From Abditibacteriota bacterium (GTDB lineage Bacteria > Armatimonadota > UBA5829): 64,000 bases of DNA. The notes below the pieces were generated by a model. That model was not told the DNA's origin. It saw only the letters and a program-made list of their open reading frames with translations, and ran no database searches. Location: contig JAFSVJ010000051.1 of NCBI GenBank assembly GCA_017445025.1, positions 1-64,000 of the forward strand. Direction: 5' to 3'. Positions 6,908-38,783 of the stretch are shown one piece after another. Positions within the stretch are counted from its first letter, which is position 1. Every line of letters begins with the position of its first letter. A program made the translations under genes and the position numbers.

Positions 6908-6923
6908 TTAAACATTCATATAA

Positions 6924-6946
6924 AAAGGATCTTCGGATCCTTTTTT
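6924..6946 (+). terminator. Intrinsic terminator of pilin-like gene 1
   Basis: AAGGATC-TTC-GGATCCTT forms a stem-loop followed by six Ts. The next gene begins about 40 bases later, so its expression would need read-through or its own promoter. Confidence 0.85.
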
Positions 6947-6983
6947 ATTATATTTATATTATTATGTGGTTTTGGGTGATATA

Positions 6984-8561
6984 ATGATTAGAAAAATAAT
7001 ATTTATTTTTGTGATTTTTCTTTTTATAAACATTGCTTTTGCTTCGAGAGATGATTATTTATTGGGAAATCCCAAAAGAGCAGAGTGGATGGTGGGAAAA
7101 TTCGGTTTGATGAATCATTATCTCTTCGTTCCCGAAGGAGAAACAGAAGAAGAAAAAACGGTAAATTTAAATAAAACCGTAGACAATTTTGATATAGATT
7201 ATTATATGGACCAAGTGGAGAGCATAGGGGCAAGTTGGCTCTTTTTTACCGTTGGTCAAAATACTAAATATTATTGTTCTCCAAATTCTGTAATAGAAAA
7301 ATGTTATCCCGGACATACATCAAAGAGGGATTTAATGCTTGAACTTGCCAAAGAATGTCACAAAAGAGGTCTTAGATTTGTATTTTATATTCCTGCAGAC
7401 AGTAGGTGGATGGATGACGGAAGCGGTTTTTATAATACATGGACAGCTGTGTGCAGAGAATATTCTTTAAGGCTTGGAAAATTGTGTGACGGTTGGTGGG
7501 TTGATGGTTGCGATCCAAATTAAATGCAAGGTTCATTCGGTAAAATGCTCTGTGAGGCTTTAAGAAGCGGAAATCATGACACTTGTCTTGGAATATCATG
7601 TCAAACTTTTGCTGCCGGCACTTATGGACAGGAGAGATATTCTTGTCCTTATACGGATTATATGCCGGGGGAAGTTCATCTTGTAGAGGATGGATATATA
7701 AGAACAGACGGAATGTTTGACCCTAATGTATTATATAAAAGTGATGACGGATATGTTAGAACTAAAAACCGTTATCCCAAATATTTTGTTCCGAAGGAGC
7801 AATTCATATTAGGTCAGCAATTACATGCTCTTGTTCCCACTGACAGTTGTTTTCAACCTTTTATAAAATTCTCATGGGTAAATTTTGAGAATAATAAGTA
7901 TGTGGAATTGGCTCACTCTTTTACTGACGTCCATGGTGGTATTACTTCTAACTGTGCCATCGATAAATCCAATGGTCATATTCCGGAAGAAGCCTTTAAC
8001 AGAGTGAAAAAGATAGGGGACAGTTATAAAGGAGAAAATGCTAAAAAGAAATATCCTTTGGATAAGAGTGTTTTAAAAAGAGCTGAAAGAAAAATACCTA
8101 AAAACCCTAACCCTAAGAATATAGCTTATTGTAAACCCTCATATTTAATGAATCCTAATTTGGATATGGAGATTAATTCAAGCGGATTTAATTATGATGC
8201 CTTTTTGGGTAATGACGGGGATTTTGATACCTGGTCTTTTGGTGGTGACGGTTTTTATGCTTATGCATATAAATTGGATTTGGAAAAAGTGACCACAGTA
8301 AAGAAAATATCTCTCTTTTTCGGAAAACCGAATAATAAAGATGTAGGTTTTACCGATGAGTTTTTGGTTAAAATTTCTAATAACGGAAAAGATTGGAAAG
8401 AGGTGGAACACTGTCTAAATCCGGAAAGAAAAACAGAAATTGAATTTAACTATGACAAAGGAATTAAATTTAGATATATAGCAATTATTGCTGTAAAGCC
8501 AAACGGTCCCAATCAACCGGGAGGTCAAATGTATATAAGAGAAATAGAAATTTATAAATAA
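6984..8561 (+). pseudogene. Secreted GH29-like/discoidin enzyme with one in-frame stop
   Basis: Read through TAA 7521-7523, this frame codes for 525 residues and is exactly as long (1578 bases) as its intact paralogue at 17637-19214, with no indel. Codon 180 is Glu (GAG) in the paralogue, in the order WWVDG-C-D-P-K-E-M-Q, and TAA here. A signal peptide (MIRKIIFIFVIFLFINIAFA), a GH29-like TIM barrel with WWVDG, and a C-terminal F5/8C domain are all preserved. The start at 6984 was chosen because the upstream ATG at 6966 only adds residues before the signal peptide. An ATG follows the stop directly (7524), but no Shine-Dalgarno precedes it. It may be a recent pseudogene, a read-through gene or an assembly error. 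Confidence 0.8.
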
Positions 8562-8572
8562 ATATTATAAAT

Positions 8573-8602
8573 TTGATATTTGATTCTTTTTTATGTTATA
8601 AT
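8573..8602 (+). promoter_or_regulatory. Promoter between two GH29-like genes
   Basis: TTGATA at 8573-8578 and TATAAT at 8597-8602 are 18 bases apart, in the 70-base gap before the next gene. It shows that the 8632 gene can be expressed independently of the interrupted one. Confidence 0.75.
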
Positions 8603-8631
8603 ATATATACAAATTAATAGGAGATATGAAA

Positions 8632-10212
8632 ATGAAAATTATATTTACCTTAATTATATTTATGTTGGGAAGTTTGGTCTTTGCTCAGAATTGGGACAAA
8701 GAACCTAATTCTCACAGGGCAGATTTTATGCAAAAGGGTTATGGGATGATGACTCACTACCTTCCTACTCCTCAAGGTGCTACAGAAGAAGAAAAAGCAG
8801 AAGATTTTAACAGAATTATTGATAATTTCAATATTGAAGCCTTTATGGACGCTTTTGATCGCTCCGGTGCCGAGTGGCTTATTTTCACCATCGGTCAAAA
8901 TGTGGGTTATTGGAACAGTTCCAACTCTGTTGTTGACAGTGTAAAGCCGGGACATACTCCAAAAAGAGACCTGGTTTTGGAAATTGCCAAAGAAGTTAAG
9001 AAAAGAGGTAAAAAGTTTATAGCATACCTTCCCGGTGAAGCTGCCGCACTTTGCGGTAACGATCCTTCATTTATTCCTGTTTTCCATTGGACACAGAGTA
9101 TAGGAACACCGGAGTTTTACGCTACTTGGGCTGATTTTTTGAGGGAATATTCTTTGAAATTCGGTAAAGATTGTGATGGTTGGTGGATAGACGGTATTTA
9201 TGCTTCTGTTCATGATAATAGTTATAATTGGTCTATATGGGCAGATGCCATGAGAGCCGGAAACCCTGACAGTGCCATAGCTTTTTCCGATGCATCTTAT
9301 GTTTTGGGATATTTAAACAATCTCACACCTGAAAATGACTACTTCCCCGGTGAAGTTCATGCCATGGAAGACGGTTATGTTAGAATAGATCCTTTGTTTG
9401 GTGAAACATATTTAAGCGATGACGGAAAGATAAGACAAAAGTATTCCTTGCCAAAATATTTTATTCCTAAAGGCCCATTTTTAGATGGTGCACGACTTCA
9501 CGCTCTTGTTCCATTTGATTCAACTTTTAATCCTACAGTTAAAACAGAGTGGGCTTCTTATGATGTGGACAGTCTTTTGAGACTTTGCCATTCCTTCCAT
9601 GCGGTAGGTGGCGGTGTCACTCTTAACTCTCCCATAAATATGGACGGAACCATACCTCCTTCATCTCTTGCCAAGCTTGAAGCTGTTGGTAAAAGTTTCA
9701 AAGATAAAAGTGCTGATAAGAAATACAAATTAGATCCAAAAGTTCTTGACAGAACGGTAAAAGTTATGGGTAAGAACCCTAACCCTAAAAACATTGCTTG
9801 GGGAAAACCGGCTAAATTATATGATGCCAATATGACAAGAGAAGTTGCTTCTTCAAGTTTTGCTCATGATGCTTTTTTAGGTAATGACGGTGATAAAGCT
9901 TCTTGTGCTGTAGGTGGAGACGGTGCTTGGGCATGGACTTATTTTCTCGATTTGGAAAAGTCCACAAAAATTTCTCAAATTAAGCTTACCATGGGTGATT
10001 TTTACGCTACGGAATTTACTGTTAGCACATCAGTTAACAATGTTATATGGGATGAAATTGACCATGTATATAATACAGATAAACAATTGGAATATACTTG
10101 GAAATTAAAGAATAAAAATGTTCGCTATATAAAGATTACATCCCTAAAGCCAAACGGAGCCAACCAAGAAGGCAAACAGCTTGGCGTTTATGAATTGGAA
10201 GTTTATAAATAA
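8632..10212 (+). CDS. Secreted GH29-like hydrolase with C-terminal discoidin domain
   Basis: The 526-residue protein has a signal peptide (MKIIFTLIIFMLGSLVFA), a catalytic barrel of about 330 residues, and a C-terminal F5/8 type C (galactose-binding-like) domain from about residue 385 (NIAWGKPAKL... to LGVYELEVYK). Barrel motifs parallel GH29: GYGMMTHYL, EWLIFTIGQNVGYWNSSNS, EIAKEVKKRGKKFIAYLPG and DGWWIDG, whose Asp is in the nucleophile position. It is a more distant paralogue of the 6984 and 17637 genes. AGGAG at 8619-8623 favours the ATG at 8632 over the one at 8626. It is probably an extracellular or surface glycosidase, perhaps an alpha-L-fucosidase; the sugar is not certain. Confidence 0.8.
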   Translation: MKIIFTLIIFMLGSLVFAQNWDKEPNSHRADFMQKGYGMMTHYLPTPQGATEEEKAEDFNRIIDNFNIEAFMDAFDRSGAEWLIFTIGQNVGYWNSSNSVVDSVKPGHTPKRDLVLEIAKEVKKRGKKFIAYLPGEAAALCGNDPSFIPVFHWTQSIGTPEFYATWADFLREYSLKFGKDCDGWWIDGIYASVHDNSYNWSIWADAMRAGNPDSAIAFSDASYVLGYLNNLTPENDYFPGEVHAMEDGYVRIDPLFGETYLSDDGKIRQKYSLPKYFIPKGPFLDGARLHALVPFDSTFNPTVKTEWASYDVDSLLRLCHSFHAVGGGVTLNSPINMDGTIPPSSLAKLEAVGKSFKDKSADKKYKLDPKVLDRTVKVMGKNPNPKNIAWGKPAKLYDANMTREVASSSFAHDAFLGNDGDKASCAVGGDGAWAWTYFLDLEKSTKISQIKLTMGDFYATEFTVSTSVNNVIWDEIDHVYNTDKQLEYTWKLKNKNVRYIKITSLKPNGANQEGKQLGVYELEVYK

Positions 10213-10225
10213 TTATTTGCCTATC

Positions 10226-10560
10226 CCCCTAAAACTCGTCAGAGTTTTGGGGGTTGCAGTTGCGAAAAATTTCCAAGGGTCTAGTCAAAAATCTTTAATG
10301 TTAAAGATTTTTGCCGTCGGGCACCGAAAAATCGTAGATTTTCCGGCTCTTGCTAAAAACGACCCAAGGGTTCCCGAAAAGTCGTTAAGACTTTTTGGGA
10401 TTTGGGCAAACAGTTGTCGTTTTTACAAAAAAGCGGTGCTTATTTCTCACCCCGAAAAGTTTCGCTTTTAGCTCAACTTTTTGTGGACCCCGAGATTGCC
10501 GCAATTCACCCCGGAAAGTTGAGCATAATCGAAACTTTTTGGGATTTGGAGTGACGGTGA
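10226..10560. repeat. Mosaic palindromic repeats, including an 84-base block
   Basis: The gap holds a CCCCTAAAACTC-GTCA-GAGTTTTGGGG hairpin (about 10226-10251), an 84-base block at 10280-10363 that recurs at 36152-36235 with four mismatches by eye, and three TCCC-AAAAAGT type inverted repeats (about 10362-10405, 10450-10498, 10508-10548). The 84-base block contains AAAATC-GTA-GATTTT, a GNA-loop hairpin. Open frames across this segment, including an in-frame extension of the next gene to 10395, are repeat artefacts. Confidence 0.8.
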
Positions 10561-10601
10561 GATGGAATCCTAATTTCTGTTTTTCTAAACGAGGAAATCT
10601 T

Positions 10602-13253
10602 ATGAAATATTATCTTATTGTTCTTTTTATTTTATTATCCGCAGTTCCAATCTTTGCCGAATACGCAAAGGGGGATGCTCCTTTTGTTAATACTTGGCTT
10701 GTTTTGGGAGCTGTTAAAGGTGATTTTGATAGTGAATTAATACAAGGTCAGCCAACTTTAGCCGAAGAAATTCAAGGTAAAAAGTGGGAATATTTGGACG
10801 ACAGACTATTTTCAAGAAACCTTGATGACTATGTGGATCTTTTTTCTTATTACAGAATTATAAAGAAAGAGAGTATTGACGGAGTTGTGGCATATCTACA
10901 TACTTTTGTTTATTCTCCGGAGGACACAGAGGCTCAAATCCGATATGGGGGAGACAGGTTTTCAAAAGTGTTTTTAAACGGTGAACTTGTTGCTTCAGCA
11001 AAGGTAGGATATTCCGAAAGAGAACATTATGATAATTGGTCCAGTTATTTGTGGAAATCCCAACAGGACAATGCCACCAAAGATACTGTAATTAAAGATG
11101 TAATGTTAAAAAAGGGTTGGAACAGTGTTTTGGTCAAGGTGGGAACGGAAAGAGAGCAGGTTTTCGGCTTATATTTCCGAATTTCCGATAAAAACGGAAA
11201 CAAAATGGATAATATTTCTTATTCCTTATACGGACCATTGTCAGATAAACTTTCAATAGATAATACTTCTATTAAAGGCACTGACAAAAATATGCCTACA
11301 GCCTTTACCGGTTGGACTTATGTGGGAGCAAAATTAGACGAGGATTTTGAACAATACACAAACAGTGCCAAAAAAGAATTGTGGGAAAGTGCTTTAAGTG
11401 CTACGGATTTTTCTTTTACAGCCTCCGGCGGTGTGCCTCCATACAGTTTTTACATAAAAGGAAATCTTCCTAAGGGTTTGGGTTTTAAAGACGGAGTAAT
11501 TTACGGAAAAGTAGATGAAAAGGCAAAATTGGGAGATTATAGTTTTACCGTTACGGTAAAGGACTCCAAAGGTGATACAGTCCATAAAGATTTTTCAATA
11601 ACTTTGAAAGAAAGACCTAACAAATGGATAGAGGCGGGAAGACTTACAGCTCTAATTCACGCTCCCGAAGGTATTCCCGCAGAAGATGTGGCAAAATTGC
11701 CAAAACAGATAAAGAGAGAGGGTTATACTGTTTGTATGCCCATTTCATACAATAACGGACAATATAAATTTAGATTTCCCAATATACTTAATACAAGGCC
11801 GGAATATGATGCGGGAGATGTTATAACTCCCATTTATGAAGCCTTTAAGAAAGAAGGGGTAAATTTTGGAATGTATGTGGGTAATGTTTTGGGCAACCCT
11901 CATTGCACTTATGATATGATTCCCCTTCTTTATGAAGATATGTGTCAAAGATATGAGCTGAAAGTTCTCTGGCATGACTGGCTTGGCGTGGATCACGCTT
12001 CTGTTGACGCTATTTATTCTTTGGTTAAGACCATAAATCCTGACACGGTTATTATAAACAACGGTTTGGAAAGATACACCAACGGTGATTGGGATGTATT
12101 GTGTATTGAAGATTTAAATACTTTTGCAAACCCGGAAAACCTCTGGGAAGGCAGATTTCCTTATAATTACGGAATTCATTATTTCAAACCGCCATATAAT
12201 TGGCCTAAGAATTATTCTCTTGAAACTTGGAAATATATTAGAGAAAAGTCAGAGAAATACCCGAAAGTCACAGACTGGGTTGACTATTTGAAGACTACCA
12301 TAGCCATTAACAGCGACGGAGGAATAACCAATCTCGATCACTCTTGGGTTAATGAGTTTGGTTATTCAACTTATTTGAAATCAGCACATGAAAAAATGGC
12401 AAATTGGTGCAACGGTAAATATGTTTCCGAGCCTTTATATAATGCCTATACAAACTGTTATCCTTTATATGATTTAAGCGGAGATTATGGTTATGCCAAT
12501 GTATCTGTTGACGGAAAAAGTATATATTTGATATTTACGGAAAACCCCAGATATAAGAAAGGTTTAAAAGCTTGCGGTGAATATTTGACACTTAATGATT
12601 TTCCCGGTGAAGTTGTTGATGCAAAATGTATAAATATTAATGTTCCCGTAAAGTTTACACAGGAAGGCAAAACCCTTACTTTGAGAGTAGCTCATCTTGA
12701 ACAGGATAAAATTGCCACAATTGTTAAATTATCTCTTAAAAAGCCTATAGAATATGAATCTGACAGACACGAATTGGAAAGGGGAACTCTTCCTGTTGTA
12801 ATTAAGAAAGGAAACATAGCTTTCGGAAAGCCTTCAAAACTAATGTCAAATGATGGTCTCCGAGAGTTGGAACCATCTTCTTTCAGTGCATTTGCTTTTA
12901 ACGGAAATGACGGTCGTTCGGATACGGTTGCCGCAGGCGCCTGGGAGTGGAACTGGACTTATGAATTGGATTTGGAAAAAGTTGAAAAGTTCGGTGAAAT
13001 AAAGGTATATTTCGGAAAGCCGGATGTGGAAGACGGTCACGGTTTTGCTACAGATTTTGCCATAAGAGTGTCAAAGGATAAGGTAAATTGGACGGAAATA
13101 GCACATTATGAAAACCCGGAGGGTAAAAAGGTCTTTGATATAGTTTGCAAAGACACGGAAGCAAGGTATATCTGCATTGACGGTTTCAAACCTGACGGAG
13201 AAGGTCAATTTGGCGGTCAAATGTCCATCGCCGAACTGGAAATATATAAATAA
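10602..13253 (+). CDS. Large secreted GH29-like multidomain enzyme
   Basis: The 883-residue protein has, in order: a signal peptide (MKYYLIVLFILLSAVPIFA); a jelly-roll carbohydrate-binding module (about 25-210, with KVFLNGE and LKKGWNSVLVKVGTE); an Ig-like He_PIG repeat (about 255-330, GGVPPYSFYIKGNLPKGL); a GH29-like barrel (about 335-640, with VLWHDWLGVDH, Asp in the nucleophile region); a beta domain; and a C-terminal F5/8C domain (about 730-883). The ATG at 10602 was chosen over an in-frame extension to 10395 because GAGG lies seven bases upstream and the signal peptide starts here. It is a paralogue of the 14725 gene. It is probably an exported glycan-degrading enzyme; the linkage is unknown. 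Confidence 0.78.
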   Translation: MKYYLIVLFILLSAVPIFAEYAKGDAPFVNTWLVLGAVKGDFDSELIQGQPTLAEEIQGKKWEYLDDRLFSRNLDDYVDLFSYYRIIKKESIDGVVAYLHTFVYSPEDTEAQIRYGGDRFSKVFLNGELVASAKVGYSEREHYDNWSSYLWKSQQDNATKDTVIKDVMLKKGWNSVLVKVGTEREQVFGLYFRISDKNGNKMDNISYSLYGPLSDKLSIDNTSIKGTDKNMPTAFTGWTYVGAKLDEDFEQYTNSAKKELWESALSATDFSFTASGGVPPYSFYIKGNLPKGLGFKDGVIYGKVDEKAKLGDYSFTVTVKDSKGDTVHKDFSITLKERPNKWIEAGRLTALIHAPEGIPAEDVAKLPKQIKREGYTVCMPISYNNGQYKFRFPNILNTRPEYDAGDVITPIYEAFKKEGVNFGMYVGNVLGNPHCTYDMIPLLYEDMCQRYELKVLWHDWLGVDHASVDAIYSLVKTINPDTVIINNGLERYTNGDWDVLCIEDLNTFANPENLWEGRFPYNYGIHYFKPPYNWPKNYSLETWKYIREKSEKYPKVTDWVDYLKTTIAINSDGGITNLDHSWVNEFGYSTYLKSAHEKMANWCNGKYVSEPLYNAYTNCYPLYDLSGDYGYANVSVDGKSIYLIFTENPRYKKGLKACGEYLTLNDFPGEVVDAKCININVPVKFTQEGKTLTLRVAHLEQDKIATIVKLSLKKPIEYESDRHELERGTLPVVIKKGNIAFGKPSKLMSNDGLRELEPSSFSAFAFNGNDGRSDTVAAGAWEWNWTYELDLEKVEKFGEIKVYFGKPDVEDGHGFATDFAIRVSKDKVNWTEIAHYENPEGKKVFDIVCKDTEARYICIDGFKPDGEGQFGGQMSIAELEIYK

Positions 13254-13269
13254 TCAGAAATCTGTCCCC

Positions 13270-13520
13270 TTAAACTTCATTCCCAAAAAGTCTTGCTTTG
13301 CTACAACTTTTTGGGAACCCTTGAAATTCGCAGGTTTGGGGGGGATTTTTGCCAAAGGCAAAAAGACGGGGGGATGGAATTCTAAGTCTTTAGACTTTCT
13401 TTGAAATTTCGTTCGTCACCTTTCCCTCTATTTTTCCGCGAAAAAGCCCATTCTCCAAAGAGTCTTACAACTTTTCGGAGTCTATTGGCCACCCAACCGG
13501 TCCTTGGCTCTCAGTCCAAA
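13270..13520. repeat. Mosaic palindromic repeats after the large GH29-like gene
   Basis: This stretch holds an AAAAAGTC...GACTTTTTGGGAACCC inverted repeat (about 13276-13315), TTTTTGCC-AAA-GGCAAAAA followed by GACGGGGGGATGGAATTCTA (about 13345-13384), and a degenerate CTCCAAAGAGT...ACTTTTCGGAG repeat (about 13443-13475). From 13520 to 13690 I see only AT-rich DNA. Confidence 0.7.
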
Positions 13521-13693
13521 AGGACTGACAGGGTAGCGTATCACCTGTATTTGACATATTAAACTTAATAGATTATATTTAAAAATATTTATTTACGAGG
13601 TATTTTATTTCATAATTTTCAAAAAAAAACTTAATAAATTTCAAATTTTTATAAAAAATCTTGTTATTTTTGCGATTTTTGGGGTTTTAAAAC

Positions 13694-13723
13694 TTGTTTT
13701 TTTTTTTTTTTATGTGGTATAAT
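13694..13723 (+). promoter_or_regulatory. Promoter of pilin-like gene 2
   Basis: TTGTTT at 13694-13699 and TATAAT at 13718-13723 are 18 bases apart, with TGG in front of the -10. The long T run between them resembles the one upstream of the first pilin-like gene, suggesting that the two are regulated alike. Confidence 0.75.
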
Positions 13724-13835
13724 ATATATGTATGATTTTTTGATACATAAATGCTTTTAAATTCAATGATATGAAGAGTTTTGAGCTTTTAGTATGAAAA
13801 ATGATACAATAAAATATCACAGGAGGATTTTCATA

Positions 13836-14615
13836 ATGAAAATCAGTTTAAAAGGTTTTACCTTGATAGAATTGTTGGTAGTGATTGCTATCATTGCCAT
13901 ACTTGCCGCAATTCTATTCCCCGTTTTCGCACAGGCAAGAGAGAAAGCAAGAGCCGCAAGTTGTCTGTCCAACTGTAAGCAGATAGGAACAGCTATCCAG
14001 CTTTACACAGACGACTACGACGAAACCCTTCCCGGTTCCAACGACTGTGACAAAGCAGTAACTTGGCCCACAGGTTTAAACAACATGTGTCCCGACGGCC
14101 CCAGTGCTATCCCTTATATGTTGAATCCCTATTGTAAAAACTATAAGATTTTTGCATGTCCTTCTGCCGGAAAAGATACTTGGTATTACTCAAGCACAAA
14201 CAGAACTTATCCAATTCATAACAAGATGTGGAATGGTTTAGTTCTTCACAGTGGCAGTTCAACTGAGACATCATACGGTCCTATTTCTATGGCACAGATT
14301 ACCAGATCTTCTGAAATAATTCTTTTTGTTGAAAGAAAGAATAATGATGTATGGCAAAGATATGCTATGATCCCCGCATTTTGGGGATTTTGGGGAACCG
14401 GTTGGACTTATGAAGCATGTTATAAACCTCTTCACAATGGTGGTGAGAACCTAACTTTTGTTGACGGTCATGCCAAATATTACAAAGTGGAAGCCATTAC
14501 TCTTGAAATGTTCGGTGCTAAAGTAAACAACGGTGCCAACAACAAGTGGTATACCGGTGGAACATATATGAACGGTATTGATACCAGAACTTCAAATTAT
14601 GTAATAGAGTTATAG
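13836..14615 (+). CDS. Pilin-like protein with N-methylation signal, H-X9-DG type
   Basis: The 259-residue protein begins [20 protein letters not shown], a class III-like prepilin signal, followed by [20 protein letters not shown] and [13 protein letters not shown]. The C-terminus has [18 protein letters not shown], a perfect H-x9-DG motif. The upstream in-frame ATG at 13794 is rejected, since the AGGAGG at 13821-13826 lies nine bases before 13836. It is paralogous to the 6179 gene and to the left-edge fragment. It probably sits in the inner membrane or in a pseudopilus; a role in a type II secretion-like export of the neighbouring hydrolases is an attractive inference, but the assembly genes are not in this window. 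Confidence 0.88.
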
Positions 14616-14648
14616 TTTTTTGCATTATGACTTAATGCTTATTTAAAA

Positions 14649-14708
14649 GGTTTATTTGAAATTTATTTAAGTTTTTATAATTATTAGATTTCAAATAAAT
14701 CTTTTTTT
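14649..14708 (+). terminator. Terminator or attenuator between pilin-like gene 2 and its enzyme
   Basis: TTTATTTGAAAT and ATTTCAAATAAA pair over 12 bp (about 14 with end pairs), with a loop of roughly 25 bases, and seven Ts follow. The tract ends only a few bases before the AAGGAG of the next gene (ATG 14725), so the downstream gene may be expressed by read-through only. Confidence 0.65.
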
Positions 14709-14724
14709 ATAAGGAGATTTTTTT

Positions 14725-17400
14725 ATGTATAAAAGGATTGTTTTTTGTATTATTCTGATTTTATTATCCTTATGTGTATTTGCAGAATATGCGGATTCCA
14801 TTGCAGACAGTGATAAATATATTAAAGATCCGGCTCCTTTCATAAACACTTGGGCAGTCCTTGGTGTTTTTAATGAAAAAGAAGCTATAGATACGGATAT
14901 TATCGGAGAAGCATCGGTTGAGCCTTATGTGGGCCAAGAAACCGGCGGTAAAACTTGGGAATATTTTGATGACCGACTTTTCTCAAGAAATTATGACGAT
15001 TATGTAGATTTATATTCCTATTATAAAGTTAAGAAAAAAGATAATGTGGACGGTTGTGTTATATATCTTCACAATTATGTTTTCAGCCCAAAGGAACAAC
15101 AAGTTCAAATCCGTTGGGGCGGAGACAGATATTCCAAAGTTTTTCTTAACGGTGAAGAAATAGGAAAAGCCTTGGTAGGTTTTCCCAACAATGTAATTAC
15201 TTATACGGATCCTGACTGGTGGCACGCCGGGGGAAACTGGAAACATCTTCAAGATAATGCCACAAAGGATGCCAATAAAGTCAACGTCACACTTAAAAAA
15301 GGCTGGAACAGAGTTTTGGTTAAGGTTGGAAATGACCGTGAAGGTGTTCTCGGTTTATACTTCCGTATTAGCGGAAACAAGGGTGAGAATTTAAATCTTA
15401 TCACTTCTCCCAACGGTCCCAAATCATCTTTAACCATAGATAATAATGCTTTAATCCTTGACGGAAATAAAAATATGCCCATAGCTTACAGAGGTTGGCC
15501 TTATGTGGGATTTGATTTGGGAGAAACTTTTTACAATTATATTAAATCTGTTCATTTTCCGGCACACTATACTTCAACAGTTTCCGCATCAGATTTTGTA
15601 TTTACAGCCGGTGGGGGCAGTGCTCCCTATTCATATTCTTTAACGGGAAAACTTCCTAAGGGTTTGTCTTTCAAAAACGGAAAGATTATGGGAAAAGTAG
15701 CTCTTCATTGTGAAATAAAAGATTACCCCATTACACTAACAGTGAAAGATGCACAAGGTCAAACAGCTACCAAAGATTTTGTCATAACTGTAAAGGAACG
15801 TCCCAATAAATGGGTGGAAGAAGGCAGAATGACAGCCCTTATCCACTCTCCCGAAACCATTCCTGCCGATAAAATAGAAGAAGCTGCCCAAGTGGTTAAA
15901 GATCAAGGCTATTGTTTGGTAATGCCCATAAACTTTAATAACGGTTTGTATAATTTTAGGTCACAAAATCGTTTTAACACAGTTCCCGAAAAAGACCTCG
16001 GTGACGCATTAACTCCTTTGGTTGAACCTTTTGAGAGTAGGGGAGTTAAGGTAGGAACTTATGTAGGAAATGTTATTCCTGCCCCACAATTTGCTTACGA
16101 TCAAGTGGTGGCAATGTATGAAGATATGATAACAAGGTATATGCCAAAAGCTATATGGCACGATTGGTTGGGAGTATGTCACGGCTCTACTGACGCAATT
16201 TTTTCACTTGTAAAGACCATAAATCCGGACATAGTTATTTTTGAAAACGGTATTCAAAGATTTACCAACGGTGACTGGGATGTTTTGGCAATAGAGTTTA
16301 TGTCAAATACCAAAGACAAAGAAGGAGATATATGGTCTTCTTTTGTATATGACTATGGTAAAAATCTATATCCGTCTGTATATAATTGGCCTAAGGCTTA
16401 TTCTATGGAAACTTGGCATTCTTTGGCTTCCCCGGATTTAATAGAAAAATTTCCTGACAAAGTAGATTGGGATAGTTTTTTAAAGCTCAATATTGCAGTT
16501 ATTTGTGAGGGCGGAATTTCCAATCTTGATCATACAATAGGAACCGCAGAGGAAGAATTCCAAAGATTTGAGCAACACAAAAAAATGGCTGCTTGGTGTA
16601 ACGGAGAAACAGTTTCTGAGCCCCTTTATCACGCTTACACCAATTGTTACCCCGTATATGAAATGGTTGAGGATTGGGGATATGTTAATGTTTCTCTTGA
16701 CGGTAAAAATTTATATGCAATTGCTATGAAAAACCCACGCGGAAAAATAGGTTTGACCGGTAAAGATATTATGATTAATTCTTTCCGAGGTGATGTAGAT
16801 TCTGTTATCAATATGAATAGCGGAGAAAGTGTTAAATTCTTACAAAAGGGTAAAGTTTTGACATTGTCTGTTAAAGATGTTAAGCCTGACCAAGTTGCTA
16901 ATATTTTCAAAATCATACTAAAAGAGCCTATTTCTTATGATGATACTCCAAGAACTTTAAAGCCGGAAAAATATACCAATAAAAAGAATTTGGCTTATCA
17001 AAAAGTGGGATATATGCAAGAAGTAAACGGTAATCTTTGGACACTTTCAAGCGGATTTGACAGATATGCCTCCTACGGAACCGACGGATTTATGGATACA
17101 GACGTGGCAGCCGGTGAAAGATATAACTGGGGATATATGGTGGATTTGGATAATGAATATTCAATCGGAAAAGTTAAAGTATATATGACCGGTGTCACAA
17201 CAAAATACAGATTGGAAGTATCTCTTGACAGTAAGAATTGGGATGTAATTGAAAAAGGTGAGAATCCGGATTTGAATAAGGAATTGGAGTTTTCTTTCCC
17301 AAAGATAAAAGCAAGATATGTTCGTTTTGTTTCATTAAAGCCTGACGGTCCCGGTCAACCCGGCGGTCAAATGGGCCTTAGAGAGATAGAAGTTTACTAA
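14725..17400 (+). CDS. Large secreted GH29-like multidomain enzyme, paralogue
   Basis: The 891-residue protein has the same architecture as the 10602 gene: signal peptide (MYKRIVFCIILILLSLCVFA), jelly-roll binding module with KVFLNGEEIGKALVG and LKKGWNRVLVKVGND, an He_PIG-type Ig domain (GGGSAPYSYSLTGKLPKGL), a barrel with AIWHDWLGVCHG, and a C-terminal F5/8C domain ending GLREIEVY. AAGGAG lies eight bases before the ATG. No promoter is seen in the 109-base gap, so it is probably co-transcribed with the pilin-like gene through the hairpin. The duplicates differ mainly in an insertion near residue 30. It is probably an extracellular glycosidase acting on fucosylated or related glycans. Confidence 0.78.
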   Translation: MYKRIVFCIILILLSLCVFAEYADSIADSDKYIKDPAPFINTWAVLGVFNEKEAIDTDIIGEASVEPYVGQETGGKTWEYFDDRLFSRNYDDYVDLYSYYKVKKKDNVDGCVIYLHNYVFSPKEQQVQIRWGGDRYSKVFLNGEEIGKALVGFPNNVITYTDPDWWHAGGNWKHLQDNATKDANKVNVTLKKGWNRVLVKVGNDREGVLGLYFRISGNKGENLNLITSPNGPKSSLTIDNNALILDGNKNMPIAYRGWPYVGFDLGETFYNYIKSVHFPAHYTSTVSASDFVFTAGGGSAPYSYSLTGKLPKGLSFKNGKIMGKVALHCEIKDYPITLTVKDAQGQTATKDFVITVKERPNKWVEEGRMTALIHSPETIPADKIEEAAQVVKDQGYCLVMPINFNNGLYNFRSQNRFNTVPEKDLGDALTPLVEPFESRGVKVGTYVGNVIPAPQFAYDQVVAMYEDMITRYMPKAIWHDWLGVCHGSTDAIFSLVKTINPDIVIFENGIQRFTNGDWDVLAIEFMSNTKDKEGDIWSSFVYDYGKNLYPSVYNWPKAYSMETWHSLASPDLIEKFPDKVDWDSFLKLNIAVICEGGISNLDHTIGTAEEEFQRFEQHKKMAAWCNGETVSEPLYHAYTNCYPVYEMVEDWGYVNVSLDGKNLYAIAMKNPRGKIGLTGKDIMINSFRGDVDSVINMNSGESVKFLQKGKVLTLSVKDVKPDQVANIFKIILKEPISYDDTPRTLKPEKYTNKKNLAYQKVGYMQEVNGNLWTLSSGFDRYASYGTDGFMDTDVAAGERYNWGYMVDLDNEYSIGKVKVYMTGVTTKYRLEVSLDSKNWDVIEKGENPDLNKELEFSFPKIKARYVRFVSLKPDGPGQPGGQMGLREIEVY

Positions 17401-17636: not shown

Positions 17637-19214
17637 ATGTTAAATAGAATCTTATTTGTTTTCTTGTTAATTATTTGGTCTGTTTTTGCTTTTTCTGCCG
17701 ATGACAGTTATCTCCTCGGTAATCCCAAGAGAGCTGAATGGATGGTAGGTAAATTTGGTTTAATGAACCATTATTTGTTTGTTCCTCCGGGAGAGACGGA
17801 AGAAGAGAAAACAGAAAATTTAAATAAAATCGTTGACAATTTTGATATAGATTATTATATGGATCAAGTAGAGCAGATAGGTGCAAGTTGGCTTTTTTTC
17901 ACCGTAGGTCAAAACACAAAATATTATTGCTCTCCCAATTCTGTAATTGAGAAATGTTATCCCGGACATACATCCAAGAGAGATTTAATGCTTGAACTTG
18001 CCACAGAATGCCATAAAAGAGGCTTAAGATTTGTTTTCTATATTCCTGCCGACAGCAGATGGATGGATGACGGAAGCGGTTATTATAATACTTGGACTGC
18101 CGTATGTCGAGAATATTCTCAAAGACTTGGAAAATTATGCGACGGTTGGTGGGTTGACGGTTGCGACCCTAAAGAGATGCAAGGTGAGTTTGGAAAGATG
18201 TTGGCTGAGGCTATGAGAAGCGGTAATCACGACACATGCCTTGGCATTTCCTGTCAAACTTTTGCGGCCGGCAGTTATAACAAAGAGTTGTATGCTTGTC
18301 CCTATACGGATTATATGCCCGGTGAAGTTCATCTTGTAGAGGATGGTTACATCAGAACAGACGGAATGTTTGACTCTTCTCTTTTATATCAAAATGAAGA
18401 AGGCTATGTGAGGGTTAAAAATAATTATCCGAAATTTTTTGAACCCAAAGAACAATTTATATTGGGACAACAACTACACGCTCTTGTGCCTACGGACAGT
18501 TGTTTTCAACCTTTTATTAAGTTAGAATGGGTAAATTTTGATAACAATAAATATGTGGAATTGGCTCATTCTTTTACTGATGCCAAAGGTGGCATAACAT
18601 TTAATTGTGCTATTGACAAGTCTAACGGTCATATCCCGGAGGAAGCCTTTAGAAGAGTTAAGAAAATAGGGGACAGTTATAAAGGCGATAATGCCAATAA
18701 AAAGTATCCTTTGGATAAAAATGTTCTGAAAAGAAGCAAACGAAAAATATCAAAGAATCCCAACCCTAAAAACATTGCATATTGCAAACCCTCTGATTTG
18801 ATGAATCCGAATTTGGATATTGAAATATCTTCAAGTGGTTTTATATATGATGCTTATTTAGGAAATGACGGTGATTATGAGACTTGGTCTGTAGGCGGTG
18901 ACGGTTTTTATGCTTACGCATATAAACTTGATTTGGAAGAAATTACCAAAGTTAAAAAAGTGTCTTTGTATTTTGGTAATCCGAATAATAAAGATAAAGG
19001 TTTTGCTGACGAATTTTTGATTAAGATATCAGATAACGGAAAAGATTGGAAAGAATTGGAACACTATGTAAATCCGGACAGAAAAACAGAGATTGATTTT
19101 AATTACAACAAGGGAGTGCAATTTAGATATATAGCAATTATTGCCGTAAAGCCAAACGGTCCCAACCAACCCGGTGGTCAAATGTATGTGAGGGAAATAG
19201 AAATTTATAAATAA
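17637..19214 (+). CDS. Secreted GH29-like hydrolase with C-terminal discoidin domain
   Basis: This 525-residue protein is the intact copy of the interrupted 6984 gene. It has a signal peptide (MLNRILFVFLLIIWSVFAFS), a barrel with KFGLMNHYLFVP, SWLFFTVGQNTKYYCSPNS and CDGWWVDGCD (Asp174 as likely nucleophile), and from about residue 380 an F5/8C domain ending GGQMYVREIEIYK. The C-terminal domain probably binds glycans. The close similarity to the 6984 copy points to recent duplication. TGAGGT precedes the start. It is the last gene of the carbohydrate block. Confidence 0.82.
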   Translation: MLNRILFVFLLIIWSVFAFSADDSYLLGNPKRAEWMVGKFGLMNHYLFVPPGETEEEKTENLNKIVDNFDIDYYMDQVEQIGASWLFFTVGQNTKYYCSPNSVIEKCYPGHTSKRDLMLELATECHKRGLRFVFYIPADSRWMDDGSGYYNTWTAVCREYSQRLGKLCDGWWVDGCDPKEMQGEFGKMLAEAMRSGNHDTCLGISCQTFAAGSYNKELYACPYTDYMPGEVHLVEDGYIRTDGMFDSSLLYQNEEGYVRVKNNYPKFFEPKEQFILGQQLHALVPTDSCFQPFIKLEWVNFDNNKYVELAHSFTDAKGGITFNCAIDKSNGHIPEEAFRRVKKIGDSYKGDNANKKYPLDKNVLKRSKRKISKNPNPKNIAYCKPSDLMNPNLDIEISSSGFIYDAYLGNDGDYETWSVGGDGFYAYAYKLDLEEITKVKKVSLYFGNPNNKDKGFADEFLIKISDNGKDWKELEHYVNPDRKTEIDFNYNKGVQFRYIAIIAVKPNGPNQPGGQMYVREIEIYK

Positions 19215-19365: not shown

Positions 19366-20319
19366 ATGGAGAAGTGGAAAAAATTGTGGTCAAACGAAAA
19401 ATTCGTGGGCTACACCTTTATTTTACCTAACTTTTTGGGTTTTTTGCTTTTTACATCTCTGCCTGTTATAGCGTCCCTTATATTAAGTTTTATGAATTGG
19501 GATATTCTTAACGAGCCTGAGTGGGCAGGTTTTGACAACTTTGTCAATCTCTTGGGTTTCCACAGAGATGAAGGAGCAATAGTAGCCAATGATGCGGAGT
19601 TTTGGAAATATTTGTATAACACTGTTTATATGATGTTAATAATTCCCGTAAGTATGGTTGGGTCCCTTTTATTGGCTTTGCTTTTAAACAGAGAAATTAA
19701 GGGAATTGTTGCTTTTAGAGCTATATATTTTCTCCCTTCAATATGTGCCGGTGTGGCAGTTTGTTTGTTGTGGAAATGGCTTCTCAATTCCAATTACGAA
19801 ATAGGTCTTATTAACTCTTCCATTGCAACTGTGGCAAGTTGGTTCGGAATAGATCCAATGTCTGTTAATTATCCCAAATGGTTATCCGACCCTGCTCTTT
19901 CAAAGCCCGCTCTTATGATTATGTCTCTGTGGTCAGGTATTGGTGGAATGAATATGATACTATACCTTGCGGCTCTGCAAAATGTTCCTCAGGAGCTTTA
20001 CGAAGCTGCTGATATTGACGGTGCATCTTCATTCCAAAAGTTTTGGAAGATTACTTTGCCTTTCCTTTCACCCACCACATTTTTCATTACAATTATGAGT
20101 ATTATAGGTGGTTTCCAAGGTGGTTTCACTCAGGCATTTGTAATGACCGAAGGTGGTCCCGCCGGTTCAACCACAACCATTGAATATTATTTGTATAACA
20201 ACGCATATTCCTATTTCCAAATGGGTTATGCCGCCGCCATAGCTTGGGTAATATTTATTATAGTTTTAATATTGACTATGATTAACTGGAAATTCGGCGG
20301 AAAATTGGTTCACTATTAG
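19366..20319 (+). CDS. ABC transporter permease, MalF/UgpA type
   Basis: The 317-residue membrane protein has about six hydrophobic segments (for example ILPNFLGFLLFTSLPVIASL, IIPVSMVGSLLLALLL, AAAIAWVIFIIVLIL). The EAA loop that contacts the ATPase is present as LYEAADIDGASSFQKFWKIT. It belongs to the carbohydrate uptake 1 (MalF) family and pairs with the next permease. Subfamily members import sugars, glycerol-3-phosphate or glycerophosphodiesters. The operon context with a glycerophosphodiesterase favours a Ugp-like role, but no substrate residue can be named. No ATPase gene is nearby, so a shared MsmK/UgpC-type ATPase is probably encoded elsewhere. Confidence 0.88.
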   Translation: MEKWKKLWSNEKFVGYTFILPNFLGFLLFTSLPVIASLILSFMNWDILNEPEWAGFDNFVNLLGFHRDEGAIVANDAEFWKYLYNTVYMMLIIPVSMVGSLLLALLLNREIKGIVAFRAIYFLPSICAGVAVCLLWKWLLNSNYEIGLINSSIATVASWFGIDPMSVNYPKWLSDPALSKPALMIMSLWSGIGGMNMILYLAALQNVPQELYEAADIDGASSFQKFWKITLPFLSPTTFFITIMSIIGGFQGGFTQAFVMTEGGPAGSTTTIEYYLYNNAYSYFQMGYAAAIAWVIFIIVLILTMINWKFGGKLVHY

Positions 20320-20330
20320 GAAGGCATAAT

Positions 20331-21158
20331 ATGAAGAAACAGACTATACTTAATAATACTATAATAATAATTTGTTTGTGTGCAATAGGAATAGGAATGC
20401 TTTTGCCTCTTATTTGGATGCTCTCTACATCTTTAAAAGAAGGTAATGCTGTAAATTCATTCCCTCCGGAATGGATACCTAATCCTATAAAGTGGTCAAA
20501 CTATAAAGATGCTGTGGAAGCTGTTCCCTTTTTCAGATATTTTATGAATTCTGTTATTATTTCTGTGACTGTGACTTTCGGTCAGGTTTTGACCAGTGCC
20601 ATGGCAGCTTATGCATTTTCACGACTTAATTTCCCGGGAAGAGATACACTTTTCTTTGGTTACCTCGCAACTATGATTATCCCCGGTTCCGTCACCATGA
20701 TTCCCACCTTTATTTTGTTCAGGTCTCTTCACTTGGTGGATACATACACAGCTTTGATTTTGCCGGGTATGTTTTCCGCATACGGAACATTTATGTTAAG
20801 GCAATTCTTTATGAGTTTGCCAAGGGAATTGGAGGATGCGGCGAAGATAGACGGTTGCACTCTGCCTATGGTATTTTGGAATGTGATTTTGCCTCTTTCC
20901 AAACCGGGACTGGCAACTCTCGCTACATTTACATTCCTTGGTTCTTGGAACAACTTTATGTGGCCTTTGGTTGTGACAAGCAGTGAGCTTAAGAAGGTAT
21001 TACCTTTGGGACTTATGTCCTTCCAAGGACAATATTCAACTCAGACCAATTTACTTATGGCAGGTTCATTAATAGCCCTTATACCTATTATATTGGTATT
21101 TTTGTTTAACCAAAGATACTTCATTAAGGGTATCCAAATGGGTGCCGTTAAAGGTTAA
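20331..21158 (+). CDS. ABC transporter permease, MalG/UgpE type
   Basis: The 275-residue second permease starts 11 bases after the first, with AGGAAGG as ribosome site. It has the MalG-type EAA loop LEDAAKIDGCTLPMVFWNVI, hydrophobic segments such as IIIICLCAIGIGMLLPLIW, and the C-terminal RYFIKGIQMGAVKG typical of this family. It forms the heterodimeric channel with the 19366 product. Confidence 0.9.
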   Translation: MKKQTILNNTIIIICLCAIGIGMLLPLIWMLSTSLKEGNAVNSFPPEWIPNPIKWSNYKDAVEAVPFFRYFMNSVIISVTVTFGQVLTSAMAAYAFSRLNFPGRDTLFFGYLATMIIPGSVTMIPTFILFRSLHLVDTYTALILPGMFSAYGTFMLRQFFMSLPRELEDAAKIDGCTLPMVFWNVILPLSKPGLATLATFTFLGSWNNFMWPLVVTSSELKKVLPLGLMSFQGQYSTQTNLLMAGSLIALIPIILVFLFNQRYFIKGIQMGAVKG

Positions 21159-21211: not shown

Positions 21212-22564
21212 ATGAAAAATAAAATCATTCTTTTAATTTTAACTCTTGTTTTTATCTTGGTTTTTGCTACAGGGTGTAATAACTCCGGCGGAGATAAAAA
21301 AGCCAAAAAAACATATCTAAACGTAGCTGTTTGGGCGTCAAACGAGGAGAGAGCTGTCCTTGAGCCGCTCTTTGATAAGTTTGAAGCGGAAAACCCGGAT
21401 ATACAGTTATTTGTGGATTATATTCTTTCTACTCAATATAAGAATAAAATCTTGACTTCTCTTGCAGGCGGAACAGGTCCGGATGTGTTCTTGGTTTACT
21501 GTTCATTGTTTTCTGCTTTTCAAGAGAAAAATGTTTTGTATCCTTTGGAAGAGCTTATTGCCAAAGACCCAACCTTTAAAAAGAGTGATTATTTGGACTC
21601 TGCTTTAAATCAATTTTCAAAAAACGGTGACCTATACTGCATTCCTCGTGATATGCTTCCTCTCTCTTTTATAGCATATAACAAGAAATGTTTTGATGAA
21701 AAAGGGCTTCCTTATCCCAAAGATTTTATGACTTATGATGAAATTATAGATCTGGCTCAAAAGGTTGGTAATAAAAACCAACATCAAATAACAAGATTTG
21801 GTTTGTATTTGGTAGATCCTTATGAAGTAATTCTATCCTATGGCGGAGAGTTGGTGGATAATGTGGAAAATCCCACAAAGGCTGCAATTAATGACCCAAG
21901 ATTTGTGAAAGGCTTGGAATTATATCACGATATGATTTATAAATACAGAATATCACCTACAAAGGCAGAAATAGATGCCATTGGGCAAGATACTATGTCT
22001 ATGTTAAAGTCAGGTAATATAGCTATGTTTTGGAGCGGAACTTGGACATTAAGGTCTTGTTTGGAAAATAAAGAAGATTTGGATTTCGGTTATGTTCAAG
22101 GACCTCATCAACCGGGCATAGAACCTAGATTTTTGCAAGGCGGAGCGGGCTATGGAATAAATGCCAACACAAAGCATCTTGACGAAAGTTGGCGAATGCT
22201 TAAGTTTATAACAGGTTATGATGTTCAATTTGCTATGGCAGATTGTGATTATCTATTCCCCTCAAGAAAGGATGTAATCAAGACTTTATATATTGATAAA
22301 CCTAAAGACCCCTACGGTGACAGAACCGCTCTTTTGAAAGCTGCCGAATGTGTAATTCCTTATCCGAAAGTTTATATTTATGATAAGGTTATGGATGCAG
22401 CGGGCAGAGTCTTTGATAACTATTTTCTTGACACTATCAGTCTTGAAAAAACCGTAAAAGACGCACAAAAAAAAGTAGACGCAGTATTCCAAGAAGAGCG
22501 AGACAAACAAGCTCGCCGAGAAGCAAGAAAAGCAAGAAGAGAAGCTAAAAAGAACAAAAAATAA
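21212..22564 (+). CDS. Extracellular solute-binding lipoprotein, family 1
   Basis: The 450-residue protein starts MKNKIILLILTLVFILVFAT followed by GC, a lipobox, so the mature protein is anchored at Cys22. The rest fits family 1 (MalE/UgpB type) binding proteins: LNVAVWASNEERAVLEPLFD, LTSLAGGTGPDVFLV, and MLKSGNIAMFWSGTWTL. An unusual feature is a C-terminal tail of about 20 residues rich in Arg, Lys and Ala (ARREARKARREAKKNKK). In a Ugp-like operon it would deliver glycerol-3-phosphate, glycerophosphodiesters or a sugar to the permeases. It lies 53 bases after the second permease; no terminator or promoter intervenes. Confidence 0.88.
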   Translation: MKNKIILLILTLVFILVFATGCNNSGGDKKAKKTYLNVAVWASNEERAVLEPLFDKFEAENPDIQLFVDYILSTQYKNKILTSLAGGTGPDVFLVYCSLFSAFQEKNVLYPLEELIAKDPTFKKSDYLDSALNQFSKNGDLYCIPRDMLPLSFIAYNKKCFDEKGLPYPKDFMTYDEIIDLAQKVGNKNQHQITRFGLYLVDPYEVILSYGGELVDNVENPTKAAINDPRFVKGLELYHDMIYKYRISPTKAEIDAIGQDTMSMLKSGNIAMFWSGTWTLRSCLENKEDLDFGYVQGPHQPGIEPRFLQGGAGYGINANTKHLDESWRMLKFITGYDVQFAMADCDYLFPSRKDVIKTLYIDKPKDPYGDRTALLKAAECVIPYPKVYIYDKVMDAAGRVFDNYFLDTISLEKTVKDAQKKVDAVFQEERDKQARREARKARREAKKNKK

Positions 22565-22594
22565 AACCCTTTACCTCACCTTTTGGAGTATAAT

Positions 22595-24211
22595 ATGAAA
22601 GTATGTGTTTTTCAACCGGAATATTCTTATAATACAGACGATGCCGACAGATTATTTCAGTCTTATATTGAAACATTGGACAGTTTGGACAAAAGCTGTG
22701 ATGTTATTGTTTTTCCCGAATATTCCAATGTGCCGGTAAAGGTGGCAAACAGAGAAGAGCTTTTGTCTTGTTTTAACAAATATACGGATTCCCTTCATTC
22801 TAAGGCCATAGAAACAGCCAAGAGATGTAAAGCCAATGTTTTTATAGGCTGGATTTATGGAACGTCCTCAGGTCTCCGAAACACCATAGTTGCTTATAAT
22901 TCCAAAGGAGAGAGGGTAGGGGAGTATTATAAACAACACTTGGTTCCGAGAGAAATGTCTGAATACAAATTGGACAGTCAATATAGTTATGAATCATCTG
23001 AGCCTACCATAATTGAAATTGACGGTGTAAAATATGCTTTTATGATATGCTATGACTGTTATTTTTATGAATTGCTATCAAATATAGGAAGATATGATCC
23101 CGATGTGCTTATAGTTTCTGCATACCAAAGAAGTGATACTCACGACACTTTGGCATTTATGAACCAATTTGCCGCATATAATACAAATGCTTATATTTTA
23201 AGGTCAAGTGTAAGTTTAGGAGGAAGCAGTCCCACCGGTGGCTCTTCCATGATAGTATCTCCCGAAGGCAAAATCCTTGCGGATGCTTATAACAATGTGG
23301 GTGTTATTACTGCGGATATTGACCCTCATAAGAGATATTTAAAGCCGGCAGGTTTCGGAAACCCACCGGCTCCTCATCATAAATATATTGAAGCGGGAAG
23401 AAGACCATGGAAATACAGACCGGCAGGTCCTTTTATCATTCCCGATAATGAAACATTGCCTTATCCGAGAATGTGTGCTCACAGAGGTTTTAATACAATT
23501 GCCCCTGAAAACTCTATGCCCGCATTCGGTGCCGCTGTTGCTCTCGGTGCGGAAGAGATAGAGTTTGACCTTTGGGAAACCAAAGACCATGAAATAGTTT
23601 CCATTCATGACCCAAATTTGGACAGAGTGTCAAATGGCACAGGTTTTGTGGGAAATAAAACTTTGAAAGAACTTAAAGAATTGGATTTCGGTTCTGTTTA
23701 TTCTCCCGAGTTTGAAGGCTTACAAATTCCTACTTTTGAAGAAATTTTAAAGAAATTTACCCGTCTGGTTATAATGAATGTTCATATAAAACACGTGGAT
23801 GATATTAATCCTTTGCCGGAAGAATATTTAAAGAAGATTATTGATTTGTGTAAAAAATATGATTGTGAAAAATATGTATATTTTATGACCGGAAATCCTG
23901 CCATTTTAAGACAACTTGAAGACCTTGCTCCTCATATGGAAAGGTGTGCCGGCGCTACGGAGGATCCTAAGGAAGATTTGGTGGAAAAGGCTTTGAAATA
24001 TGGATGTAAAAAAATACAACTTTTCTCTCCTCATTTTGAGTTTAATCCTCCGGATTATGTAGAAAAAGCAGTAGAAAAAGCTCATAAAAACGGCATAAAA
24101 GTAAATCTGTTTTATTCCGACGACCCTAAGGAAGCCAAGATGTATTTAGACCTTGGTGTGGATACAATCCTAACCAACGATTACCATCGAGTTGGAAGTA
24201 TACTAAAATAA
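22595..24211 (+). CDS. Nitrilase-superfamily amidase fused to glycerophosphodiester phosphodiesterase
   Basis: The 538-residue protein joins two enzymes. Residues 1 to about 265 form a carbon-nitrogen hydrolase with the Glu-Lys-Cys triad: Glu42 in VFPEYSN, Lys113 in YKQHLVP and Cys152 in MICYDCYF. Residues about 290-538 form a GDPD domain with His296 (CAHRGFNTIAPENSMPAF), Glu323 and Asp325 (EIEFDLWE), and His338 (SIHDP). No signal peptide is visible, so it is cytoplasmic. It follows the ABC genes like UgpQ follows UgpBAEC in E. coli. I infer cleavage of imported phosphodiesters that also carry an amide or nitrile. GGAG six bases upstream supports the ATG at 22595, not the upstream TTG at 22583. 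Confidence 0.85.
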   Translation: MKVCVFQPEYSYNTDDADRLFQSYIETLDSLDKSCDVIVFPEYSNVPVKVANREELLSCFNKYTDSLHSKAIETAKRCKANVFIGWIYGTSSGLRNTIVAYNSKGERVGEYYKQHLVPREMSEYKLDSQYSYESSEPTIIEIDGVKYAFMICYDCYFYELLSNIGRYDPDVLIVSAYQRSDTHDTLAFMNQFAAYNTNAYILRSSVSLGGSSPTGGSSMIVSPEGKILADAYNNVGVITADIDPHKRYLKPAGFGNPPAPHHKYIEAGRRPWKYRPAGPFIIPDNETLPYPRMCAHRGFNTIAPENSMPAFGAAVALGAEEIEFDLWETKDHEIVSIHDPNLDRVSNGTGFVGNKTLKELKELDFGSVYSPEFEGLQIPTFEEILKKFTRLVIMNVHIKHVDDINPLPEEYLKKIIDLCKKYDCEKYVYFMTGNPAILRQLEDLAPHMERCAGATEDPKEDLVEKALKYGCKKIQLFSPHFEFNPPDYVEKAVEKAHKNGIKVNLFYSDDPKEAKMYLDLGVDTILTNDYHRVGSILK

Positions 24212-24212
24212 C

Positions 24213-24236
24213 AGCAGGTTTTACCTGCTTTTTTTA
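24213..24236 (+). terminator. Terminator of the ABC/GDPD operon
   Basis: AGCAGGT-TTT-ACCTGCT is followed by a T tract, one base after the stop codon. It closes the four-gene unit. Confidence 0.85.
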
Positions 24237-38718: not shown

Positions 38719-38783
38719 ATAATTGAATATAAACAGATAGAATTGTTTTTGTTGGACAGATTAATTCTTTGATAGAGGAGTTT

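What the first reader, a model, noticed from the sequence alone, without database searches (positions are those of the whole stretch)
22595..24211. Nitrilase-glycerophosphodiesterase fusion at the end of a Ugp-like operon
A carbon-nitrogen hydrolase domain (Glu42, Lys113, Cys152) is fused to a GDPD domain (His296, Glu323, Asp325, His338), both with catalytic residues intact, and sits directly behind two permeases and a binding lipoprotein. In E. coli the equivalent place holds UgpQ, a stand-alone GDPD. The fusion suggests that the imported compound has both a phosphodiester and an amide, for example N-acyl- or peptide-linked glycerophosphoethanolamine. I do not know of a described enzyme of this kind.
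Basis: partly seen in the sequence, partly recalled or inferred. Interest (0 to 1): 0.7.

Follow-up and report, generated by a model that had tools for sequence, protein, structure and literature searches.

The report
Fused amidase–phosphodiesterase enzyme from gut bacteria
One gene encodes two different hydrolases joined end to end, a nitrilase-type amidase and a glycerophosphodiesterase-like enzyme; the same joined protein turns up in dozens of gut Clostridia genomes, and we found no paper that describes it and no known substrate.

Summary
Window 22595-24211 encodes a 538-residue protein with a CN_hydrolase (nitrilase) domain followed by a GDPD domain, behind two permeases and a binding lipoprotein and closed by a terminator-like hairpin. 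It is not a misassembly: 48 full-length copies of the same fusion occur in 41 of 394 genomes of one Clostridia order, and three of 291 genomes of the window's phylum have it. The window copy groups inside the Clostridia copies (100/97) and is absent from its two same-genus genomes, so it was probably acquired horizontally. Nitrilase Glu-Lys-Glu-Cys residues are invariant in 52 of 52 copies; GDPD His/Glu/Asp/His in 51 of 52. The 'Ugp' reading fails: the transporter resembles oligosaccharide importers, and no other fusion examined has that transporter beside it. Fusion alone does not prove one shared substrate (compare NitFhit). Best reading: a bifunctional hydrolase for small nitrogen-containing phosphodiester metabolites, substrate unknown; an undescribed variant of known families.

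The parts
22595..24211 (+). Nitrilase-GDPD fusion gene, 538 aa from ATG 22595 (TTG 22583 possible)
   Evidence: 51 homologues aligned with it
22613..23329 (+). CN_hydrolase (nitrilase) domain; Glu42 22718-22720, Lys113 22931-22933, Glu120 22952-22954, Cys152 23048-23050
   Evidence: Pfam PF00795 4.3e-23; residues invariant 52/52
23330..23479 (+). Conserved linker; Arg269, Pro271, Tyr274, Arg275 invariant
23480..24181 (+). GDPD-like domain; His296 23480-23482, Glu323 23561-23563, Asp325 23567-23569, His338 23606-23608, His397 23783-23785 in place of the metal-ligand Glu
   Evidence: Pfam PF03009 5e-37
22585..22588 (+). GGAG ribosome-binding-like site before ATG 22595
   Evidence: read directly
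24213..24229 (+). Intrinsic-terminator-like hairpin followed by a T run, closing the gene group
21212..22564 (+). Solute-binding lipoprotein, sugar type
   Evidence: PF01547 8.7e-30; best solved relative arabino-oligosaccharide-binding protein 6rjy, 1e-27
20331..21158 (+). ABC permease (CUT1-like)
   Evidence: PF00528 4.9e-20
19366..20319 (+). ABC permease (CUT1-like)
   Evidence: PF00528 6.1e-17
17637..19214 (+). Secreted alpha-L-fucosidase-like protein with F5/8C domain
   Evidence: PF00754; solved alpha-L-fucosidase 9pnj 5.2e-16
14725..17400 (+). Secreted He_PIG / F5/8C protein

Best explanation
A cytoplasmic bifunctional hydrolase. The N-terminal nitrilase domain cleaves a C-N bond (amide or carbamoyl) with Glu42-Lys113-Cys152 and Glu120. 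The C-terminal GDPD-like barrel cleaves a phosphodiester, probably through a cyclic phosphate, with His296 and His338 and one metal held by Glu323, Asp325 and His397. The two steps most likely act in sequence in salvage or catabolism of small nitrogen-containing phosphodiester metabolites, from lipid head groups or sugar phosphodiesters, in gut bacteria. The window's genome probably acquired the gene from this Clostridia order, and it now ends an oligosaccharide-uptake gene group. Shown here: the fusion, its conservation, its spread, the conserved site residues, the His replacement, the nested position in the tree. Inferred: that both sites are active, that they work in sequence, the class of substrate, the direction of transfer.
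For: Both domains are found by Pfam. 48 full-length copies in 41 of 394 genomes of one Clostridia order (my count of its rows), two of them in the genome that holds L024, and two more distant copies in the window's phylum besides the window. Nitrilase residues are invariant in 52 of 52 and GDPD residues in 51 of 52, which argues that selection keeps both sites. In the loci held, this nitrilase type never occurs without the GDPD half: the only stand-alone nitrilase matches are remote, 151.7 bits (L051) and 73.7 bits (L048), against 276 bits or more for the fusions. In one genome (L099) the fusion follows, in the same direction, a gene best matched by the type 2 glycerol-3-phosphate oxidase and GlpA models (below their cut-offs), a pyridine-nucleotide oxidoreductase and DUF1667. 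In L122 a glycerol-1-phosphate-dehydrogenase-like gene (below cut-off) lies two genes downstream. Both fit release of a glycerol phosphate. Immediate neighbours include glycoside hydrolase family 2 (5 of 78), AraC (4 of 78) and Gfo/Idh/MocA (3 of 78), none of which is among the 25 families listed for 78 genes four or more places away. Transfer: window and L087 pair inside the Clostridia copies with support 100/97; no fusion in same-genus G001 and G002, while the neighbouring leuA is native (74% and 72% identity to G002 and G001).
Against: No substrate is known and nothing was assayed. No gene is a constant partner, so no pathway is fixed. Near relatives such as L095/L101, L109/L111 and L114/L115 inflate the neighbour counts. 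His397 could mean a substrate other than a glycerol phosphodiester, or a changed activity. L130 has lost the GDPD active-site stretch yet keeps the nitrilase residues, and six stand-alone GDPDs fall in the same clade, so the two activities can part. The structure model was too poor (mean pLDDT 59.1) to tell whether the sites face each other.
Confidence: 0.45

Rival explanations
1. NitFhit-like case: both domains are active but on unrelated compounds, joined for co-expression, oligomer assembly or damage repair. The nitrilase half would be a metabolite-repair amidase.
For: NitFhit joins a nitrilase to a nucleotide hydrolase, and mammalian Nit1 was later found to hydrolyse deaminated glutathione (passages of PMC9913352). 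The nitrilase half's best solved relatives are Nit-type proteins (3p8k, 1f89; NitFhit 1ems at 4.6e-13). Gene neighbours vary from genome to genome.
Against: The Arg in the CYDxRF stretch of 3p8k and 1f89 is Tyr156 in all 52 copies, so a Nit1/omega-amidase substrate is unlikely. Stand-alone genes of this nitrilase type were not found in the loci held.
Confidence: 0.3
2. The GDPD-like half acts on a sugar phosphodiester rather than a glycerophosphodiester, as AccF does on agrocinopine after ABC import. This overlaps the best explanation and is not exclusive of it.
For: His397 replaces the Ca2+-ligand Glu152 of B. subtilis GlpQ, whose Ca2+ also binds the glycerol hydroxyls (passages of PMC7086022; alignment). 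The window transporter is of the sugar type, the same-genus genomes have a CUT1-type transporter and a GH38 mannosidase before leuA, and sugar-catabolism neighbours recur. [quoted passage not shown]
Against: AccF was not compared by sequence here; that it belongs to the GDPD family is recalled. The glycerol-phosphate dehydrogenase-like neighbours of L099 and L122 favour glycerol phosphates.
Confidence: 0.25
3. One half is mainly structural or regulatory and only the other is an active enzyme.
For: L130 keeps the nitrilase residues with a broken GDPD half. L129, nested among fusions, is a GDPD alone.
Against: 51 of 52 copies keep every catalytic residue of both halves.
Confidence: 0.12
4. Misassembly of two genes.
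For: None found; the source is a 122-contig assembly.
Against: Collinear homologues over the whole length at 32-60% identity in more than 40 other genomes.
Confidence: 0.01

Closest known systems
UgpQ / GDPD family (Pfam PF03009), nearest solved structures 2pz0, 2otd, 5t91 (GlpQ)
   Same: Fold family, HRG, ExD and catalytic His motifs, probable metal dependence; cytoplasmic like UgpQ (recalled)
   Different: Fused behind a nitrilase; third metal ligand Glu (Glu152 in GlpQ) is His397; not above the cut-off of any GDPD equivalog model in NCBIfam (best 121.3 bits against 264)
Nit1/Nit2-type nitrilase superfamily members (3p8k, 1f89) and N-carbamoyl-D-amino-acid hydrolase (6led)
   Same: Glu-Lys-Cys with the second Glu, C-x-D stretch followed by Glu
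   Different: Arg of CYDxRFPE is Tyr156; distinctive invariant Gln178-Arg179 and RxPxxYR linker; below every equivalog cut-off
NitFhit (1ems)
   Same: A nitrilase domain fused to a phosphoester-bond hydrolase
   Different: Partner is a histidine-triad nucleotide hydrolase, not a TIM-barrel GDPD; eukaryotic (D. melanogaster and C. elegans)
AccF, agrocinopine phosphodiesterase of Agrobacterium
   Same: Cytoplasmic phosphodiesterase for a compound brought in by an ABC transporter (PMC4526662 passages)
   Different: No nitrilase domain is mentioned in the passages read; sequence relation not tested here

Membership tests
GDPD (PF03009) | Significant profile match over the domain | tested here: met
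   128.8 bits against cut-off 23.6
GDPD (PF03009) | Catalytic His pair and ExD metal ligands | tested here: met
   His296, His338, Glu323, Asp325 in 51 of 52
GDPD, canonical GlpQ/UgpQ-type site | Third acidic metal ligand (Glu152 of GlpQ) | tested here: not met
   His397 in 52 of 52; ligand role of Glu152 from PMC7086022 passages. So: GDPD fold family, but not a canonical three-acid site
GDPD (PF03009) | Glycerophosphodiesterase activity | not testable with these tools
   needs assay
UgpQ equivalog (NF006989) | Score above the curated cut-off | tested here: not met
   121.3 bits against 264
Nitrilase superfamily (PF00795) | Profile match and Glu-Lys-Cys triad | tested here: met
   82.4 bits against 23.2; 52 of 52 residues
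Nit1/Nit2 omega-amidase or deaminated-glutathione amidase | Equivalog score; Arg after the catalytic Cys | tested here: not met
   38.3 bits against 355; Tyr156 in place of Arg
Ugp (glycerol-3-phosphate) transporter | UgpA/UgpE equivalog scores; UgpB-type binding protein | tested here: not met
   97.9/335 and 163.2/297 bits; the binding protein's solved relatives are sugar binders

The most novel reading that the evidence does not exclude
A widespread, undescribed gut-bacterial enzyme family that degrades a not yet recognised class of amide-bearing phosphodiester metabolite, with a GDPD barrel whose metal site has been rebuilt with a histidine so that it no longer needs a glycerol moiety.
Probability: 0.25. 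Interest if true: 0.65.

Novelty: new variant of a known kind. Interest (0 to 1): 0.42.

Why it matters
Both halves are common enzyme families, but their fusion recurs in about one tenth of the sampled genomes of one Clostridia order (41 of 394), with both sites kept. That makes it a tractable lead to a metabolite that carries both an amide and a phosphodiester. The conserved His metal ligand makes a direct prediction about metal and substrate preference that one purified protein can test.

Tried and rejected
Misassembly: rejected by collinear homologues.

Ugp operon: rejected as above.

G028 stand-alone GDPD as a relic of a split fusion, suggested by a match running through a TGA: rejected, the sequence upstream shows no nitrilase.

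Plasmids and phages: no record with one place covering 80% of the query, and the hits listed match the GDPD half only (5 of 6 and 5 of 47 records listed).

Conserved gene neighbourhood by sequence clustering: apart from the fusion itself the widest clusters reached 5 loci.

Rows dropped: A2 left out contig-edge or partial matches (two in G543, one each in G393 and G445) and the GDPD-only genes L129, L131 and L132. The fusion tree left out L130. The GDPD tree used 19 of the 52 fusions and 30 stand-alone genes, chosen by hand. The neighbour tallies left out L049, L050 and L096-L098 (doubtful gene calls in GC-rich or near-copy loci), genes under 150 or over 1200 aa, and the far set was a random 78. 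Gene calls in scripts were my own heuristic, so some neighbours may be spurious. The numbers 48 copies and 41 genomes are my count of the full-length rows.

Full report
What is there. The ORF from ATG 22595 to 24211 encodes 538 residues with no signal peptide visible at its N-terminus. Pfam finds CN_hydrolase (82.4 bits) and GDPD (128.8 bits), each far above its cut-off. NCBIfam gives only sub-threshold matches to named enzymes (UgpQ-type 121.3 of 264; deaminated glutathione amidase 38.3 of 355). The gene follows two permeases and a lipoprotein with short gaps and ends at a hairpin with a T run.

How widespread. A scan of genome contigs gave one full-length relative (L024, a Clostridia metagenome genome from roe deer colon, 52% identity). 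Among 291 genomes of the window's phylum, three carry the fusion: the window's own, G042 and G064. In the order of L024's genome, 48 full-length copies lie in 41 of 394 genomes (my count); seven genomes have two. In a sample of 398 genomes of that phylum at large only the centre genome itself has it at E up to 1e-45. The fusion is therefore concentrated in one Clostridia order with rare outliers. The closest copy is L087 at 60%. The tree pairs it with the window at 100/97 inside the Clostridia set, with the G042/G064 pair on a long branch (midpoint root). The same-genus genomes G001 and G002 have only GDPD-half matches and no match to the binding protein at E up to 1e-60, whereas leuA next door is 72% and 74% identical there. 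This fits horizontal acquisition of the fusion by the window's lineage; the direction is inferred.

Active sites. On the 52-row alignment A2, Glu42, Lys113, Glu120 and Cys152 are invariant in 52 of 52. His296, Glu323, Asp325 and His338 are kept in 51 of 52; L130 has lost the GDPD active-site stretch. The residue aligned with Glu152 of B. subtilis GlpQ, one of three protein ligands of the Ca2+ (passages of PMC7086022), is His397 in all 52; the same column is Glu in 2pz0, 2otd and 5t91 (the numbering offset of 25 between 5t91 and GlpQ was worked out from the HRG motif). Over 95 distinct GDPD stretches in hand the column is His in 69, Glu in 22, Tyr in 2, Trp in 1 and a gap in 1; the 69 include the fusions, and at least one (L004) is doubtfully aligned. 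So His marks a sub-family wider than the fusion. Published work on LpgD supports a two-step cyclic-phosphate mechanism for GDPDs with two histidines and a metal (passages of PMC10404611). In the nitrilase half the Arg of CYDxRFPE in 3p8k and 1f89 is Tyr156 in all copies, so Nit-type substrates are not expected; the Arg's role in carboxylate binding is recalled.

Are the halves coupled? In the loci held, this nitrilase type is always fused; the only separate nitrilase matches are remote. The GDPD halves of fusions form a 100/99 clade together with six stand-alone GDPDs, so fusion and separation have both happened; one origin with losses is neither excluded nor shown. NitFhit warns against reading a fusion as one substrate: Nit1 proved to act on deaminated glutathione (passages of PMC9913352).

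Surroundings. In the window the gene closes a group with secreted fucosidase-like and F5/8C proteins and a sugar-type importer. A GH29 fucosidase and a GH1 enzyme lie further upstream. In G001 and G002 the place before leuA holds a CUT1-type transporter, an AraC-like gene (my reading of the translation) and a GH38 mannosidase (only the G002 genes were scanned); whether this is the same locus replaced, or chance, is open. Elsewhere the neighbours differ: GH2, AraC, Gfo/Idh, nucleoside hydrolases, a glycerol-3-phosphate-oxidase-like group (L099) and a glycerol-1-phosphate-dehydrogenase-like gene (L122). A modest tilt towards sugar and glycerol-phosphate catabolism is all that can be said. The window's own transporter has no homologue in the stretches held around other fusions, so it should not be used to infer the substrate of the family.

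Literature. Four full-text searches for the combination of the two families found no paper on the fusion (none; three papers, seen only as listing and start of abstract, on other subjects). The library is open-access only, so earlier mention elsewhere is possible.

Verdict. Real, conserved, catalytically plausible in both halves and apparently undescribed; the operon-based substrate idea is not supported beyond this one genome. New variant of known enzyme families.

Noticed in passing
window 6966-8561: A close paralogue of the secreted protein at 17637-19214 is split by an in-frame TAA at 7521-7523.
   Followed up: partly
window 6179-17400: Tandem paralogues: fucosidase-like/F5-8C proteins and He_PIG/F5-8C proteins, with two pseudopilin-like ORFs (6179-6907, 13794-14615; the second matches DUF1559 and N_methyl) among them.
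   Followed up: partly
window 38769-40901 and 43864-46023: Two large ORFs that look like glycyl-radical enzymes by eye; not scanned.
   Followed up: no
L129 2097-2882: A stand-alone GDPD nested among the fusions in the tree that has Glu where the fusions have His397.
   Followed up: partly
L130 8998-10479: A fusion with intact nitrilase residues whose GDPD half has lost its active-site stretch.
   Followed up: partly
L140 7241-10153, L141 7699-10611: In both same-genus genomes a GH38 mannosidase-type gene behind a CUT1-type transporter lies just before leuA; only the L140 copy was scanned.
   Followed up: partly
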